Assembly: GCF_040958095.1 (NCBI RefSeq)
Contig: NC_091181.1
Coordinates: forward strand, 26,192,230-26,256,229
Direction of reading: 5' to 3'
DNA: 64,000 nucleotides
From: Procambarus clarkii
Taxonomy: Eukaryota > Arthropoda > Malacostraca > Decapoda > Cambaridae
Shown here one piece after another: positions 3,993 through 62,612 of this stretch. A program made the position numbers and the translations under genes. How positions within the stretch are numbered: the first letter of the stretch is position 1; each line of letters starts with the position of its first letter. The notes below the pieces were generated by a model. It searched no databases and was not told the DNA's origin. It saw only the letters and a program-made list of their open reading frames with translations.

Positions 3993-5012
3993 TTGATCTT
4001 ACAAAGTGGTGTGGTGCGGTTGAGAATGGCTACTAGAGTGAAGTTTTTTTCCAGAAAGCATTACATTATGACATAATGAATGGATAAGTGATATTTTGTC
4101 TTATTATTATTTACTACTGTATCTATATTCTGTTTTTGCTATACTGCATTGTCCACCTATTTTTCTCTGTGCTGATGCCTCCCCATCCTGTATGAGTGTG
4201 ACTGTGAAAGGCATTACGAAAGTCTGCATGTTACCATAAGTATCTATCACCATTATTGACAATGATTTTCCATCCCTTCTATCCAAGTACCTTTCCATCT
4301 CATAAGAAAGAAGAGCAAGTAATTATCAAATACAAGCACTAAGGCTGGAAAGCTATATAGCACTGTGTCACGTAACATTCAAGAGGTACTAGATATCATT
4401 CACAATGCCGATACGAGAGTAGAAAGGGATAAGACGAGTGATGCCAAAGGAGTCAAATTCACCAGGAATGTTATCGAGGGATATACGAGTTGGAGAAACG
4501 GTGAAAAAGCTAAATGTTCAGTCATTCAGACAACAACTGCCACGCTCTGTAAGAAGGTACGAGACCGCTACCAGAACAGTGCAGTCTACCAGTAAAGTGC
4601 AGGTGGATATTCCTTGTGCCCATGAGTTGGACATGTGTGTGGCCAGTATGTATCCAAGCCGGAGACGTTTTCAATATCCTGTCCCTTGGTGACAGGAGGA
4701 AGGCCATAGGATTAGGTCATGTGTGACAGTATGTGACTTGTCATTCGCAACAGCTTACCATCTATCTTGCCAATGGTTATGGATGATGCTACCAATAACA
4801 CGTTATAAATCCAAGTAGAAAATTCACTTGTGGGAGATGGAACAGGCACGAACAGCCTCTTAGCAGTGGCGCCCATGAGGTCACTGAAAGCAACACACAT
4901 GACCGAGATCACAGCAAAATTCAACCATCTTATATCTGCTAAAAATGCGATACACCCAATGTTAGATTTTGAAGACCCCCCCAGGATGCATAGGGTTAAA
5001 AAAGACTCCAGG
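3993..5012. other. Intronic sequence without recognised features
   Basis: About 1 kb of unremarkable sequence. Short open frames occur on both strands around 4365-5018 but resemble nothing I know. I see no repeat or splice structure in it. Confidence 0.4.

Positions 5013-37802: not shown

Positions 37803-37849
<47 letters not shown>
37641..37849. repeat. TCCCAATCTCAGATT-type tandem repeat, (GA)n and (CA)n
   Basis: Three short units with CCCAATCTCAGATTT, then (GA)n 37684-37766, a 40-base spacer, then (CA)n 37807-37849. Confidence 0.92.
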
Positions 37850-37850
<1 letters not shown>

Positions 37851-38665
37851 GCTGCAGGAATGGTCGAACAAATGGATGTTAGAGTTTAACCCAAGCAAAT
37901 GTAATGTAATGAAGATAGGAGTAGGAAGCAGGAGACCAGATACAAGGTATCACTTGGGAGATGAAATACTTCAAGAGTCAGAGAGAGAGAAAGACCTGGG
38001 GGTTGATATCATACCAGACCTGTCCCCTGAAGCTCATATCAAGAGGATAACATCAGCAGCATATGCCAGGTTGGCTAACATAAGAACGGCCTTTAGAAAC
38101 TTGTGTAAGGAATCTTTCAGAACATTATATACCACATATGTCAGACCAATCCTGGAGTATGCGGCTCCAGCATGGAGTCCATATCTAGTCAAGCATAAGA
38201 GTAAACTGGAAAAGGTTCAAAGGTTTGCCACCAGACTAGTACCCGAGCTGAGAGGTATGAGCTACGAGGAGAGACTACGGGAATTGAACCTCACTTCGTT
38301 GGAAGACTGAAGAGTTAGGGGGGACATGATCACCACATTCAAGATTCTCAAGGGAATCGACAGGGTTGATAAAGATAGGCTATTTAACACAAGGGGCACA
38401 CGCACTAGGGGACACAGGTGGAAACTGAGTGCCCAAATGAGCCACAGAGATATTAGGAAGAACTTTTTTAGTGTCAGAGTGGTTGACAAATGGAATGCAT
38501 TAGGAAGCAATGTGGTGGAGGCTGACTCCATACACAGTTTCAAGTGTAGATATGATAGAGCCCAATAGGCTCAGGAACCTGTACACCTGTTGATTGACGG
38601 TTGAGAGGCGGGACCAAAGAGCCAGAGCTCAACCCCCGCAAGCACAACTAGGTGAGTACTAGGTG

Positions 38666-38668
<3 letters not shown>
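37850..38668 (+). mobile_element. LINE A RT C-terminal half and 3' UTR
   Basis: Plus-strand LQEWSNKWMLEFNPSKCNVM, KDLGVDIIPDLSPEAHIKRI and LYTTYVRPILEYAAPAWSPY, then RGTRTRGHRWKLSAQMSHRD and SVRVVDKWNALGSN. A single TGA at about 38308 replaces a residue of LEDxRVRG; otherwise it reads through. The 3' UTR ends CACAACTAGGTGAGTACTAG, a 12-base duplication, then (AC)n. The family is CR1-like. Confidence 0.88.

Positions 38669-38756
<88 letters not shown>
38669..38756. repeat. (AC)n tail of LINE A
   Basis: A dinucleotide run directly after GTGAGTAC, interrupted once by CC. Confidence 0.95.
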
Positions 38757-52245: not shown

Positions 52246-52736
52246 CAGGTGAGTGCCAGGCGGCCAGCATCTTCCGGTTCCCCTGTAAATATGTGTGACG
52301 TGATCACTGTCACAGTGCCGGCGGGAGGGGGTGCCGGGGGGGGGGAGAACAGATGGAAGGGGGGGGAGCAGGAAAGGTGGGATGGGGTGTTAGAGAGGAG
52401 GAATTAGGGGGGGGGGAGGTAAAGAGGGGGAGTAGGGGCTTTCCAACTATTTGGAGAGGTGGGGGGGATATGCCCCAGAAGGGGGGGGGGTCAGAATCAC
52501 CATATGATGAACCACTAAGGGTGCCTGGAGTGCCAGGTGCATCCCTAGCGGGGCACTGCCAAGACGGTGGTAGAATAGTGCCAGCACTGTCGCCCCCCCC
52601 CCCTGTCAGTAGGGAGGGCCACCAGGTGGGCCTTCACAGTGCCCCGCGACCAACGCTAACTGCCTTGTTCACTCCACCAGCTGACAACCCGGAAGTGGCA
52701 CCGGGTGTGTGCCTGTCCGCCTCGCTCCAGGGGGTG
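52246..52736. other. G-rich unassigned sequence
   Basis: Many G-runs of 5-9 bases between 52326 and 52490. No recognisable element or gene. Confidence 0.5.
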
Positions 52737-53697
52737 TACTCACCTAGTTGTGCTTGTGGGGGTTGAGTTTTGGCTCTTTGGTCCCGCCTCTCAACTGTGA
52801 ATCAACAGGTGTACAGGTTCCTGAGCCTACTGGGCTCTATCATGTCAACACTTGAAACTGTGTATGGAGTCAGCCTCCACCACATCACTGCCTAATGCAT
52901 TCCATTTGTCAACCACTCTGACACTGAAAAAGTTCGTTCTGATATCTCAGTGGCTCATTTGGGCATTCAGTTTCCACCTGTGTACCATAGTACACGTGCC
53001 CCTTGTGTTAAATACTGTCTTTATCTACCCTTATCAATTCCTTTGAGAATCTTGAATGTGGTGATCATGTTCCCCCTGACTCTTCTGTCTTCCAGCGACG
53101 TGAGGTTTAATTCCCGTAGTCTCTCCTCGTAGCTCATACCCCTCAGTTCGGGTACTAGTCTGGTGGCAAACCTTTGAACCTTTTCCAGATTAGTCTTATG
53201 TTTGACTAGATATGGACTCCATGATTGCATGGAGTCCATGATAACTCCATGATAGCTGCATACTCCAGGATTGGTCTGATATATGTGGTATACAAAGTTC
53301 TGAATGATTCCTTATACAAGTTTCTAAAGGCCGTTCTTATGTTAGCCAACCTGTCATATGCCGCTGATGTTATCCTCTTGATATGAGCTTCAGGGGACAG
53401 GTCTGGCGTGATATCAACCCCCAGGTCTTTCTCTCTCTCTGACTCTTGAAGTATTTCATCTCCCAAATGATACCTTGTATCTGGTCTCCTGCTCCCTACA
53501 CCTATCTTCATTACATTACATTTGCTTGGGTTAAACTCTAACAACCATTTGTTCGACCATTCCTGCAGCTTATCCAGGTCTTCTTGAAGCCTCAAGCAGT
53601 CCTCCTCTGTCTTAATCCTTTCATAATTTTGGCATCGTCAGCAAACATTGAGAGGAATGAGTCAATACCCTCCGGAAGATCATTTACGTATGTAAAT

Positions 53698-53699
<2 letters not shown>
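52737..53699 (-). mobile_element. LINE A, RT palm-to-end fragment
   Basis: Minus-strand YVNDLPEGIDSFLSMFADDA then LQEWSNKWLLEFNPSKCNVM, KDLGVDITPDLSPEAHIKRI, TRLVPELRGMSYEERLREL. The frame breaks near 53215-53250, where a palindromic ATGGACTCCATGATTGCATG segment is inserted within the LEYAAPAWSP region. The 3' tail antisense begins TACTCACCTAGTTGTGCTTG at about 52737. Confidence 0.87.
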
Positions 53700-53786
<87 letters not shown>

Positions 53787-55849: not shown

Positions 55850-57170
55850 CGCCCCCAACCCAGGCCTCAGCCCCCAGGCCACAGTCCCCAGCCCAGGCCA
55901 CAGTCCCCAGCCCAGGCCACAGTCCCCAGCCCAGGCCACAGTCCCCAGCCCAGGCCACAGTCCCCAGCCCAGGCCACAGCCCCCAGCCCAGGCCACAGCC
56001 CCCAGCCCAGGCCACAGCCTCCAGCCCAGGCCACAGCCCCCAGCCCAGGCCACAGCCCCCAGCCCAGGCTACAGCCCCCAGCCCAGGCTACAGCCTCCAG
56101 CCCAGGCCACAGCCCCCAGCCCAGGCTACAGTCCCCAGCCCAGGCTACAGTCCCCAGCCCAGGCCACAGCCTCCAGCCCAGGCCACAGTCCCCAGCCCAG
56201 GCCACAGCCTCCAGCCCAGGCCACAGTCCCCAGCCCAGGCCACAGTCCCCAGCCCAGGCCACAGCCTCCAGCCCAGGCTACAGCCCCCAGCCCAGGCCAC
56301 AGTCCCCAGCCCAGGCCACAGTCCCCAGCCCAGGCCACAGTCCCCAGCCCAGGCCACAGTCCCCAGCCCAGGCCACAGTCCCCAGCCCAGGCCACAGCCT
56401 CCAGCCCAGGCCACAGCCTCCAGCCCAGGCTACAGTCCCCAGCCCAGGCTACAACCTCCAGCCCAGGCCACAGTCCCCAGCCCAGGCCACAGTCCCCAGC
56501 CCAGGCCACAGTCCCCAGCCCAGGCCACAGTCCCCAGCCCAGGCCACAGTCCCCAGCCCAGGCCACAGTCTCCAGCCCAGGCTACAGCCTCCAGCCCAGG
56601 CCACAGCCCCCAGCCCAGGCTACAGCCCCCAGCCCAGGCCACAGTCCCCAGCCCAGGCCACAGCCTCCAGCCCAGGCTACAGCCCCCAGCCCAGGCCACA
56701 GTCCCCAGCCCAGGCTACAGCCCCCAGCCCAGGCCACAGTCCCCAGCCCAGGCTACAGCCCCCAGCCCAGGCTACAGCCTCCAGCCCAGGCCACAGCCCC
56801 CAGCCCAGGCTACAGCCCCCAGCCCAGGCCACAGTCCCCAGCCCAGGCCACAGCCTCCAGCCCAGGCCACAGCCCCCAGCCCAGGCCACAACCCCCAGCC
56901 CAGGCTACAGCCCCCAGCCCAGGCTACAGCCTTCAGCCCAGGCCACAGCCCCCAGCCCAGGCTACAGTCCCCAGCCCAGGCTACAGTCCCCAGCCCAGGC
57001 CACAGCCTCCAGCCCAGGCCACAGTCCCCAGCCCAGGCCACAGCCTCCAGCCCAGGCCACAGTCCCCAGCCCAGGCCACAGTCCCCAGCCCAGGCCACAG
57101 CCTCCAGCCCAGGCCACAGCCCCCAGCCCAGGCCACAGTCCCCAGCCCAGGCCACAGCCTCCAGCCCTAA
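55850..57170. repeat. 19-bp minisatellite, about 70 units
   Basis: The unit is CAGTCCCCAGCCCAGGCCA, with AGCC/AGTC and GGCTA/GGCCA variants. As 19 is not a multiple of 3 and no frame contains a stop, all plus-strand frames are open and give a 19-residue protein repeat (SPAQATVPSPGHSPQPRPQ). The 447-codon frame is therefore not evidence of a gene. Confidence 0.96.

Positions 57171-57327: not shown

Positions 57328-57330
<3 letters not shown>

Positions 57331-57360
<30 letters not shown>
57331..57360. repeat. (GT)n tail of LINE B
   Basis: (AC)n on the minus strand, directly after the LINE B tail ACAGGTGAGCAC. Confidence 0.93.
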
Positions 57361-57362
<2 letters not shown>

Positions 57363-59356
57363 CACCTGTTTGTGTCTACAGGATCGAGCATTGGCACTTT
57401 TGGATCCCGCCTTTCTAGCCATCGGTTGTTTACAGCAATGACTCCTGTCCCATTTCCCTATCATACCTAGTTTTAAAATTATGAATAGTATTTGCTTCCA
57501 CAACCTGTTCCTCAAGTGCATTCCATTTTTCCATTACTCTCACGCTAAAAGAAAACTTCCTAACATCTCTGTGACTCATCTGAGTTTCCAGCTTCCACCC
57601 ATATCTCCTCGTTCTGTTACTATTCCGTGTGAACATTTCGTCTATTTCCACTCTGTCAATTCGCCTGAGTATTTTATACGTTCCTATCATATCCCCCCCC
57701 CTCTCCCTTCTTTTTTCTAGTGTCGTAAGGTTCAGTTCCTTCAGGCGCTCTTCATATCCCATTCCTCGTAATTCTGGGACGAGCCTCGTCGCAAATTTCT
57801 GAACCTTTTTCAGTTTCCTTATGTGTTTCTTCAGGTCGGGACTCCATGATGGCGCGGCATACTCTAAAACTGGTCTCACGTTGGCAGTGTAAAACATCCT
57901 AAATGCCTTCTTACTTAGGTTTCTGAATGATGTTCTAACTTTTGCCAGTGTAGAGTACGCTGCTGTCGATATCTTATTTATATGTGCCTCAGGAGATAGA
58001 TTAGGTGTTACGTCCACACCCAGGTCTCTTTCACGCGTCGTTACAGGTAGGCTGTTCCCCTTCATTGTGAACTGTCTCTTTGGTCTCCTATCACCTAATC
58101 CCATTTCCATAACTTTACATTTGCTCGAGTTGAACTCCAGCAGTTCCATCATCTCTGGAACCTGTTCAGGTCCTCTTGGAGGATCCTACAATCCTCATCT
58201 GTCACAACTCTCCTCATTAATTTTGCGTCATCCGCAAACATCGACATGTAAGATTCTACTCCTGTAAACATGTCGTTAATGTATATTAGAAATAGAATTG
58301 GTCCCAGCACCGATCCTTGAGGTACTCCACTCGTTACTGTTCGCCAGTCCGACTTCTCGCCCCTTACCATTGCTCTCTAGCTCCTTCCTGTTAGGTAGTT
58401 CCTTACCCATGCTAGGGCCTTTCCGCTTACTCCTGCCTGCCTCTCAAGTTTGAATAGCAGTCTCATGTGCGGTACTGTATCAAAGGTTTCTTGGCATTTT
58501 AGAAATAAGCAGTCTGCCCAACCTTCTCTGTCCTTCCTTATCCTCGTTATTTTATCATAGAATTCCAAAAGATTTGTTAGGCATGATTTCCCTTTCCAGA
58601 ACCCATGTTGATGTTTGTTTACAAACCTAATGTTCTCTAGGTGTGCAACTAGTCTTAGAATAATTAGTCTTTCAGGTATTTTGCAGGGGATGTTTGTCAG
58701 TGATACAGGTCTATAGTTAAGTGCCTCCGCCCTATTACCTTTCTTGAAGATTGGTGCCACATTTGCCTTCTTCCAGCAACTGGGCAATTCTCCCGACATA
58801 AGTGACTCATTAAAGATCCTTGCCAGAGGCACGCTGAGGGCCTGCGCTGCCTCTTTTAGTATCCACGGTGATACTTTGTCTGGTCCAACCGCTGTTCTTA
58901 ATCTTATCTCTTGGTTGTTCACCGACATCTTTCTTCTTATATGACTGTGTAGTAATTTAGGTTGCTTTTTCGCTTTGATCGCAATATCGTTCTCATAATT
59001 TCTTTCCGATGCTCTTCTTATGTTAATGTAATCATTCCTATCTCTGTTGCATCTGATCCTGTTGTCCTCTGTCCTTTGTCTTCTGTACTTCCTCCACTCC
59101 CGCCTGCTTCAGATTTTTGCTTCCTGACACTGTCTATTAAACCATGGGCTATTATATTCCCTCCTACTTTTTTCCTTTACTGTTGGTATAAATCTCTCTT
59201 CGACCTCCTGGCATTTCTGTATGACTTGGTTCATCATATCTTGGACTGTTTTTCCTCTAATTTCTTCCTCTAACTGCACTTCTCCCAGATACCCCCTTAT
59301 CCTCTTATAGTCTCCTTTCCTGTAGCCCCCCTTTACTGTAGTCAACTCTCCTTTTT

Positions 59357-59357
<1 letters not shown>
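57361..59357 (-). pseudogene. LINE B (CR1-like), linker through RT to 3' end, with several frame breaks
   Basis: Four minus-strand segments read in order. 59345-59109: YRKGDYKRIRGYLGEVQLEE and FIPTVKEK (endonuclease-RT linker). 58928-58377: [51 protein letters not shown]. 58370-58149: WRTVTSGVPQGSVLGPILFL and SYMSMFADDAKLMRR. 58152-57430: LLEFNSSKCKVMEMGLGDRR, ERDLGVDVTPNLSPEAHI, RPVLEYAAPSWSPDLKKHIR, to KTRYDREMG. In motif A the family's catalytic Asp position shows Lys (FLKCQETFDTVPH), while FADD is intact. Frame breaks near 58370 and 58150 and lost endonuclease make it non-autonomous. Confidence 0.9.

Positions 59358-59418
<61 letters not shown>
59358..59418. repeat. (GT)n junction, LINE A tail to LINE B 5' end
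   Basis: On the minus strand the LINE A tail CTAGGTGAGTAC runs into (AC)n, and LINE B starts directly after it. Confidence 0.95.
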
Positions 59419-59422
<4 letters not shown>

Positions 59423-59661
59423 CACCTAGTTGTACTCACCTAGTTGTGTTTGCGGGGGTTGAGCTCTGGCTCTTTGGTCCCGCCTCTCAACCGTCAATCA
59501 ACAGGTGTACAGATTCCTGAGCCTATCGGGCTCTGTCATATCTACACTTGAAACTGTGTATGGAGTCAGCCTCCACCACATCACCCCCTAATGCATTCCA
59601 TTTGTCAACCACTCTGACACTAAAAAAGTTCTTTCTAATATCTCTGTGGCTCATTTGGGCA

Positions 59662-59665
<4 letters not shown>
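59419..59665 (-). mobile_element. LINE A C-terminal and 3' end fragment
   Basis: Antisense GTATGGAGTCAGCCTCCACC, GTCAACCACTCTGACACTAA and CTCTGTGGCTCATTTGGGCA. The 3' tail is duplicated (ACTCACCTAGTTGTACTCAC). 5' truncated at (GT)n. Confidence 0.87.

Positions 59666-59698
<33 letters not shown>
59666..59698. repeat. (GT)n junction, SINE tail to LINE A 5' end
   Basis: On the minus strand the SINE tail ACTAGGTGAATAC runs into (AC)n, then LINE A begins. Confidence 0.95.
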
Positions 59699-59700
<2 letters not shown>

Positions 59701-59990
59701 TCACCTAGTTGTGGCTGGGGTTGAGCTCTGCTCTTTCGGCCCGCCTTTCAACTGTCAATCAAGTGTTACTAACCACTAACTAAATTTTTGTTTTCCACAC
59801 ACTTACACCCCCAGGAAGCAGCCCGTAACAGCTGTCTAACTCCCAGGTACCTATTTACTGCTAGGTAACAGAGGGAATCAAGGTGAAAGAAACTCTGCCC
59901 CCATAGTTTCCCACCGGTGCCGGGATTCGAACCCCGGTCCACATGACTACGTATCCAGCGTGCTGTCCACTCAGCCATCGACGCCCCACT
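59699..59990 (-). mobile_element. SINE family T (tail A)
   Basis: Antisense tail A (CACCTAGTTGTGGCTGGGGT, GGCCCGCCTTTCAACTGTCA), core, then a head with B box GGGGTTCGAATCCCGG and an anticodon arm containing TACGTAG. The 5' end is near ATCGACGCCCC. Confidence 0.85.
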
Positions 59991-60271
59991 CAGCCACCGG
60001 CGCCCCACTCAGCCACTAGGATTCCTGATGCCCCCCCCCCCTTCCTTCCCTCCACCACTCCCTCCTGAGCATGGAGGTGTCTCCTGCTGAAGGCTGGGTG
60101 GAGCTGGCCGCCTCCACCTCCAGCGTCTGACTGAATATGGAGAAGCCCTGGAGCCAGCCAGGCCCGTGAAGCAACATGCGACGCGGTATTCACCATGCCG
60201 CTTACGCCAGCCTTACGCACACATGCGCACATTCACAACTAATGCGTATAATACCCGTTGTTGGGAATAGC
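59991..60271. other. No recognised features
   Basis: A GC-rich stretch with no coherent coding signal. Confidence 0.4.
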
Positions 60272-62164: not shown

Positions 62165-62207
62165 CCCCCTCAGCGTCGAATTACAATTAGGTGAGTACAA
62201 TTAGGTG

Positions 62208-62294
<87 letters not shown>

Positions 62295-62376
62295 TTGTTG
62301 ATTGACAGTTGAGAGGCGGGACCAAAGAGCCAGAGCTCAACCCCCGCAAGCACAACTAGGCGAGTGCAACTAGGTG

Positions 62377-62407
<31 letters not shown>

Positions 62408-62552
62408 CCACCCACACACGCCCACACACGCCCACACACCCACACACACCCACACACCCACACACACCCACACACCCACCCACACACGCCCACACACCCA
62501 CACACACCCACACACCCACACACACCCACACACCCACACACACACACACACA

Positions 62553-62611
<59 letters not shown>
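62165..62611 (+). repeat. Chain of LINE A/SINE tails joined by (AC)n
   Basis: GTACAATTAGGTGAGTAC then (AC)n 62213-62293, a tail A unit (TTGATTGACAGTTGAGAGGC to CAACTAGGCGAGTGCAACTA), then (AC)n with CCCAC and CGCCC variants 62382-62611. The last run leads directly into LINE B. Confidence 0.93.

Positions 62612-62612
<1 letters not shown>

What the first reader, a model, noticed from the sequence alone, without database searches (positions are those of the whole stretch)
57331..59990. Head-to-tail retroelement chain joined by (AC)n: SINE, LINE A, LINE B
Read on the minus strand: SINE (59990-59699), (AC)n, LINE A fragment (59665-59419), (AC)n, LINE B (59357-57361), (AC)n. All three elements share one orientation, and each 5' end begins exactly where the previous element's (AC)n tail stops. 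This is what is expected if new copies are target-primed in the (AC)n tails of earlier ones. Non-LTR elements that home to microsatellites are known in other clades (Waldo, Kibi, Dong), but I know of no such description for CR1-like elements and their SINEs in decapods.
Basis: partly seen in the sequence, partly recalled or inferred. Interest (0 to 1): 0.85.

Follow-up and report, generated by a model that had tools for sequence, protein, structure and literature searches.

The report
Retrotransposons stacked inside AC-repeat tracts
In this 4-billion-base animal genome, two related LINE families and their partner SINE insert again and again, nearly always the same way round, into runs of AC repeats, including the AC tails of earlier copies, which builds head-to-tail chains; homing to AC repeats was known in other retrotransposon families, so this is a new and strongly supported variant of a known behaviour.

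Summary
The chain is real: on the minus strand SINE, (AC)35, LINE A fragment, (AC)61, LINE B, (AC)31, junctions within two bases of those reported. The pattern holds genome-wide. Of 109 copies outside the window, 55 have (AC)10+ on the sense strand just before the 5' end and 2 have (GT)10+; random sites in 20 random regions give 0.4%. Of 1,461 exact SINE heads, 93 lie within 30 bp downstream of a sense-oriented element tail and 0 downstream of a reversed one (about 0.7 expected). Insertion favours AC tracts with strong polarity, as annealing of an AC-ended RNA to a nicked TG strand predicts. LINE B has a PF14529 endonuclease and a reverse transcriptase; clade unresolved. AC/TG-repeat targeting is already reported for Mino and Togen. 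Unexplained: 39 of the 93 SINE junctions have 7 bp or less of AC.

The parts
59699..59990 (-). SINE; 3' ~70 bp resembles the LINE A 3' end and ends ...CAACTAGGTGAAT; tRNA-like head (boxes by eye, recalled) preceded by partial head repeats
   Evidence: ARAGORN finds no tRNA here
59664..59698 (-). (AC) tract, 35 bp, between SINE and LINE A
59420..59663 (-). LINE A, 5'-truncated 3' fragment (~245 bp), ends in two 14-bp ACAACTAGGTGAGT repeats; youngest unit of the chain by nearest-relative identity
59359..59419 (-). (AC) tract, 61 bp, between LINE A and LINE B
57361..59358 (-). LINE B, 5'-truncated and decayed; coding sequence broken over several frames (58377-59108, 58149-58376, 57430-58185)
57330..57360 (-). 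(AC) tract after LINE B, 31 bp
62182..62210 (+). 14-bp tail repeats (TACAATTAGGTGAG) of an earlier element, start of a second chain
62211..62293 (+). (AC) tract, 83 bp, of the second chain
62296..62380 (+). LINE A 3' fragment (~85 bp) two bases after the (AC)83 tract, followed by an AC-rich block to 62612
37847..38669 (+). LINE A 5'-truncated copy starting at the end of the (AC)44 tract 37806-37849 and followed by AC 38669-38755

Best explanation
LINE A, LINE B and the SINE are copied by target-primed reverse transcription whose priming step favours AC/TG dinucleotide tracts. The element RNA ends in ...GGTGAGTACAC, with more or fewer AC units. A nick in the TG strand of an AC tract exposes a 3' end that can pair with this RNA end and prime synthesis, so the new copy lies with its sense strand on the AC strand. 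Such tracts are either ordinary microsatellites or tails of earlier copies, so repeated insertion stacks elements head to tail. In the window the SINE and LINE B came first and LINE A was inserted later into the AC tract between them. Shown: location, polarity and enrichment. Supported but not proved: the order of insertion. Inferred: nick, annealing and priming, and whether the endonuclease or the RNA end sets the preference.
For:: 61 of 118 resolvable copies (55 of 109 outside the window) have (AC)10+ within 50 bp 5' on the sense strand; (GT)10+ in 3 of 118 (2 of 109). Same test at random sites: 20/5000 AC and 20/5000 GT in 20 random 3-kb regions, 137/5000 AC and 125/5000 GT in all loci. Genome-wide SINE heads: 1,461; AC12 run within 30 bp upstream 191 (C-ended) plus 226 (A-ended; some copies may be in both); GT12 before 12 distinct copies; AC12 (C-ended) 300-329 bp upstream 15. 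Tail before head 93, reversed tail 0, about 0.7 expected from 127,258 tails (my arithmetic). Neighbouring units within 150 bp: 49 head-to-tail, 4 same strand with upstream 3' end incomplete, 13 opposite, 2 collinear pieces set aside. LINE B EN PF14529 and RT PF00078. Nearest scored relatives: LINE A 100% (rounded) in 9 other copies over the whole fragment, LINE B 94%, SINE 88%.
Against: 57 of 118 copies have no AC tract 5', including the window SINE itself. A test for target-site duplications failed: 15 of 57 non-AC copies share a 7+ bp stretch on both sides, null mean 10.75, maximum 17. 39 of the 93 tail-SINE junctions have 7 bp or less of AC, so a long tract is not needed. Nothing biochemical is shown. 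Nearest-neighbour identity is only a rough clock, and only the best 40 candidates per query were scored. Copies were picked by similarity to the window's own elements.
Confidence: 0.78

Rival explanations
1. Template jumping: during one insertion event the reverse transcriptase runs off the 5' end of one RNA and continues on the 3' end of another, so a whole head-to-tail chain is made at once.
For: Many junctions are tight, with almost no AC: 39 of 93 tail-SINE junctions have 7 bp or less of AC; two LINE A copies join at GAGTA|CACAAGGGG in L006; L096 joins LINE A to a SINE with 5 bp of AC. Jumping is known for R2-type enzymes (recalled).
Against: 36 of 61 AC-flanked copies follow an AC tract with no tail recognised by the motif test; by eye at least two of these 36 (L030, L014) are tails that the test missed, and one call among the 25 (L045) is doubtful. 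In the window the middle LINE A rounds to 100% identity with 9 other copies while the SINE and LINE B on either side are much more diverged from their nearest scored relatives, which one event cannot easily give. L095 holds a 50-bp LINE B piece (98% to L020) beside LINE A sequence at 87% to the LINE A reference.
Confidence: 0.2
2. AC tracts are merely fragile or open DNA that collects insertions, without any pairing with the element tail.
For: Enrichment at AC tracts alone would fit.
Against: Polarity: AC 55 to GT 2 (binomial p 2e-14), SINE heads at least 226 to 12, tails 93 to 0. A strand-neutral hotspot predicts equal numbers.
Confidence: 0.04
3. Assembly artefact: reads or contigs wrongly joined at AC repeats.
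For: AC tracts are hard to assemble; one locus (L017) has a run of N at the 5' flank.
Against: A false join at AC cannot place a 5'-truncated element start beside AC unless that element already follows AC (inference). 39 of 93 tail-SINE junctions have too little AC to mislead an assembler.
Confidence: 0.03
4. Composite units: chains were made once and then amplified as a block (segmental duplication or read-through RNA).
For: Some junctions occur twice: two identical pairs (on C20 and C84) and two near-identical pairs (on C50 and C63); L052 and L066 are two copies of one SINE locus.
Against: By eye, the rest of the 93 listed junctions differ in sequence or in AC length, and truncation points differ between most copies.
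Confidence: 0.05

Closest known systems
Mino (R1-clade LINE that inserts into AC repeats; Kojima and Fujiwara 2003, cited in PMC3124438)
   Same: Same target, AC repeats; 2 hits reported in the decapod P. monodon (passage)
   Different: R1 clade; the LINE A and LINE B proteins here show no CCHC motif in the stretch read (that R1-type proteins carry one is recalled). The passage I read mentions no SINE partner or chain; the 2003 paper itself was not seen
Togen (fish families related to NeSL, (TG)n-specific; PMC4640811)
   Same: TG/AC dinucleotide tract as target (passage)
   Different: From the passages, the NeSL group belongs to the LINEs with a restriction-like endonuclease; LINE B here has a PF14529 endonuclease
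CR1-L3 and Rex LINEs that seed microsatellites in snakes (PMC6050309)
   Same: LINE 3' ends adjoin microsatellites and spread them (passages)
   Different: The passages I saw do not speak of the same repeat before the 5' end, nor of chains
[quoted passage not shown]
   Same: LINE and SINE with microsatellite-like 3' ends; tail-target pairing discussed
   Different: That paper reports that Bov-B copies are rarely flanked by targets that resemble the 3' repeats (section 4.1); here 61 of 118 sampled copies are
Alu insertion into A-rich tails of earlier Alu copies (recalled)
   Same: Head-to-tail stacking because tail and target are alike
   Different: L1 machinery and A-rich target; no test made here

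Membership tests
Non-LTR retrotransposon (LINE) | Reverse transcriptase domain | tested here: met
   PF00078 E 1.1e-31 (LINE B, L021) and 2.3e-34 (LINE A, L005); two partial hits in the window LINE B
Non-LTR retrotransposon (LINE) | Endonuclease domain upstream of RT | tested here: met
   LINE B relative L089, PF14529 E 5.5e-10; not examined for LINE A
CR1 clade | Phylogenetic placement of RT within CR1 | not tested
   No LINE reference set on hand; the nearest solved structures are R2 and L1 proteins, which does not decide it
Mino / R1 clade | C-terminal CCHC motif (recalled feature) | tested here: not met
   No CCHC-like motif in the 608-aa and 546-aa open stretches; ORF1 was not examined
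Site-specific microsatellite-targeting LINE | Insertion confined to the target repeat | tested here: not met
   Only 61 of 118 copies are AC-flanked: a strong preference, not strict specificity
Site-specific microsatellite-targeting LINE | Fixed orientation relative to the repeat | tested here: met
   AC 55 to GT 2 outside the window; tails 93 to 0
SINE/LINE pair with a common 3' tail | SINE 3' end derived from the partner LINE 3' end | tested here: met
   LINE A 1663-1733 matches the SINE 3' end of L096, 92% over 71 bp; window sequences. Descent, as opposed to likeness, was not tested
tRNA-derived SINE | tRNA-like head | tested here: inconclusive
   ARAGORN none; mascRNA match below its gathering score; A and B boxes by eye only (recalled)

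The most novel reading that the evidence does not exclude
The elements recognise the end of an earlier copy (...GTACAC) as a junction in its own right, either as an insertion target or through template jumping between RNAs, so that LINE A, LINE B and the SINE form a self-targeting system that grows head-to-tail chains even where almost no AC repeat is present.
Probability: 0.22. Interest if true: 0.72.

Novelty: new variant of a known kind. Interest (0 to 1): 0.55.

Why it matters
[quoted passage not shown] a 2026 paper says there is no consensus and finds little tail-target likeness in Bov-B (PMC13295347, section 4.1). This genome gives a large natural test with the opposite result: 61 of 118 sampled copies sit in tail-like DNA with near-absolute polarity. 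It also suggests a feedback loop: tails add AC tracts, tracts attract copies, which could help explain AC-rich, transposon-rich genomes (inference).

Tried and rejected
Single-event origin of the window chain (rejected on identity differences). Strand-neutral hotspot (rejected on polarity). Extra preference for tails over other AC tracts (not seen: 18 of 44 against 47 of 130), although tail-SINE junctions as such far exceed chance. Target-site duplication search (not significant). tRNA and Rfam searches of the SINE region gave nothing firm. The PDB search with the endonuclease piece found nothing at E 0.1.

Rows dropped before the counts: loci L001, L009 and L039 (duplicates of the window); copies shorter than 60 bp, not reaching within 30 bp of the reference 3' end, or starting within 60 bp of a sequence end; LINE copies reaching the first 20 bases of the reference (so the window LINE B is not counted); and one copy (L017) with N in the 5' flank. 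The scripts used the window plus loci up to L088.

Literature: ten searches of the held library were answered (listings capped at 8 to 20 papers, one with none). No listed title or abstract opening that I saw described AC-tract insertion by CR1-like LINEs or SINEs in decapods; this covers that library, those terms and those listings only. The Alu-tail listing was not followed up by reading. Of papers, I saw passages or one section, never a whole text.

Full report
Observation. The minus strand reads SINE 59990-59699, (AC)35, LINE A 3' fragment from 59663, (AC)61, LINE B 59358-57361, (AC)31 (lengths in bp). A second chain lies on the plus strand at 62182-62612: 14-bp tail repeats, an 83-bp AC tract, an 85-bp LINE A end two bases later, then an AC-rich block.

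What the units are. The genome (G000, 4.03 Gb, 2,308 contigs) is held but unnamed; I did not test the decapod assignment. A 247-bp LINE A query drew 555 candidates, a 401-bp LINE B query 4,490 and the SINE 5,374; in each case 40 were scored. LINE A and LINE B are related: their open stretches (546 aa in L005, 608 aa in L021) are 64% identical over 544 aa and both match PF00078. The window LINE B is 5'-truncated: all 5 relatives fetched continue upstream of its 5' end, three of them over the whole stretch fetched, and L089 encodes a PF14529 endonuclease end. L092 is itself truncated just after TCACACACACC, and L091 after CGTACACACAGG. The window LINE B reading frame is broken. The SINE shares about its last 70 bp with LINE A, as expected for a SINE/LINE pair. 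Clade is not settled; the best PDB matches are to R2 and L1 proteins.

Test of 5' flanks. In the window plus loci up to L088, 118 copies had a usable 5' end (47 SINE, 40 LINE A, 31 LINE B); 61 have (AC)10+ within 50 bp upstream on the sense strand and 3 have (GT)10+. Without the window it is 55 and 2 of 109. The same test at 5,000 random sites gives 20 AC and 20 GT in 20 random 3-kb regions, and 137 AC and 125 GT in all loci. Fisher p is 6e-82 and 1e-51; sites within regions are not independent, so these p values are optimistic. The copies are not a random sample: they are the best matches to three queries from the window, plus what lies near them.

Whole-genome pattern counts. The SINE head GGTGGCTGAGTGGACAGC occurs 1,461 times. 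An AC12 run ending in C lies within 30 bp upstream in 191 matches and one ending in A in 226; one copy can give more than one match, so the number of copies is at most 417 (29%), and probably above 200. GT12 occurs before 12 distinct copies (32 rows). The C-ended AC12 run 300-329 bp upstream gives 15. An element tail AGGTGARTACAC lies within 30 bp upstream of 93 heads and its reverse complement before none. With 127,258 such tails in the genome (the backwards control pattern gives 1,251) about 0.7 would be expected either way (my arithmetic). Two pairs among the 93 are identical and two more nearly so. Neighbouring units within 150 bp in the sampled loci: 49 head-to-tail, 4 same strand with the upstream 3' end incomplete, 9 tail-to-tail, 4 head-to-head, 2 collinear pieces set aside.

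What is targeted. Of AC tracts of 14+ bp, 18 of 44 followed by an element and 47 of 130 not followed by one are element tails. Counted the other way, 25 of the 61 AC-flanked copies have a tail motif just before the AC; by eye the test missed at least two (L030, L014) and one call (L045) is doubtful. So AC tracts of either origin are used about in proportion. For SINEs a long 3' AC run goes with a 5' AC run (11 of 23 against 1 of 24, the one being the window SINE; p 0.0007), which suggests that part of the supposed tail is the target. LINE B keeps a long 3' run in 6 of 11 copies without 5' AC, and LINE A in 5 of 15, so these families also carry or grow their own. Target-site duplications could not be shown above chance, although single cases such as ACAGAAAAAC in L052 and L066 (one duplicated locus) begin with ACA.

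Order of insertion in the window. LINE A rounds to 100% identity with 9 other copies over the whole fragment, whereas the nearest scored relative is 94% for LINE B and 88% for the SINE, and LINE B is decayed. The simplest order is SINE and LINE B first, LINE A last, into the AC tract between them. This argues against making the chain in one event. Another locus shows a longer chain: L095 reads AC tract, LINE A end, AC tract, 50-bp LINE B end, SINE.

Mechanism. The polarity follows if a nicked TG strand anneals to the AC end of the RNA and primes its copying. That step is inferred. A strand-neutral hotspot is contradicted by the polarity, and assembly error is made unlikely by junctions with little AC. 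Template jumping is not excluded for the 39 of 93 tail-SINE junctions with 7 bp or less of AC; among 71 local tails 19 are that short, so a long AC run seems not to be required. The pattern cannot see long AC runs (gap of at most 30), so the two distributions are not strictly comparable. This is the most interesting loose end.

Known relatives. Mino, an R1-clade LINE, inserts into AC repeats and gave 2 hits in the shrimp P. monodon (PMC3124438, passages). Togen families of fish are (TG)n-specific (PMC4640811, passage). CR1-L3 seeding of microsatellites is reported in snakes (PMC6050309, passages), and an SSR-transposon link in penaeids (PMC7878876, passages). In Bov-B the targets rarely resemble the tail (PMC13295347, section 4.1). 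A review notes that other LINEs end in non-A repeats, with slippage during reverse transcription proposed for UnaL2 (PMC3747384, passages). The case here differs in combining two LINE families, one shown to have a PF14529-type endonuclease, with a SINE, a preference that is strong but not strict, and chains. I file it as a new variant of a known kind.

Noticed in passing
G000:C1:2656409-3049506 (listed rows): 50 same-strand element tails in two blocks (28 from 2.66 Mb, 22 from 2.96 Mb) with recurring spacings: probably a tandem or segmental duplication built on these elements.
   Followed up: no
window 59967-60016: The SINE head is preceded by 2.6 copies of a 19-bp repeat containing the head motif; doubled heads also appear in some strings.
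   Followed up: no
L089-L093, and the 5' end of LINE B at about window 59300-59358: A 20-bp unit (GGAAAGGAGAGTTGACTACA) just downstream of the endonuclease coding of LINE B varies in copy number among copies (L091 has several).
   Followed up: no
window 52735-53691 (minus strand): A LINE A copy whose 5' end lies beside the complement of the (AC)86 tract 53699-53784: the one wrong-polarity case among the 9 copies counted in the window.
   Followed up: partly
window 55873-57167: A 19-bp minisatellite (68 copies, CCCAGGCCACAGCCCCCAG) keeps long open frames on the plus strand (up to 590 aa) and shorter ones on the minus strand, right beside the chain.
   Followed up: no
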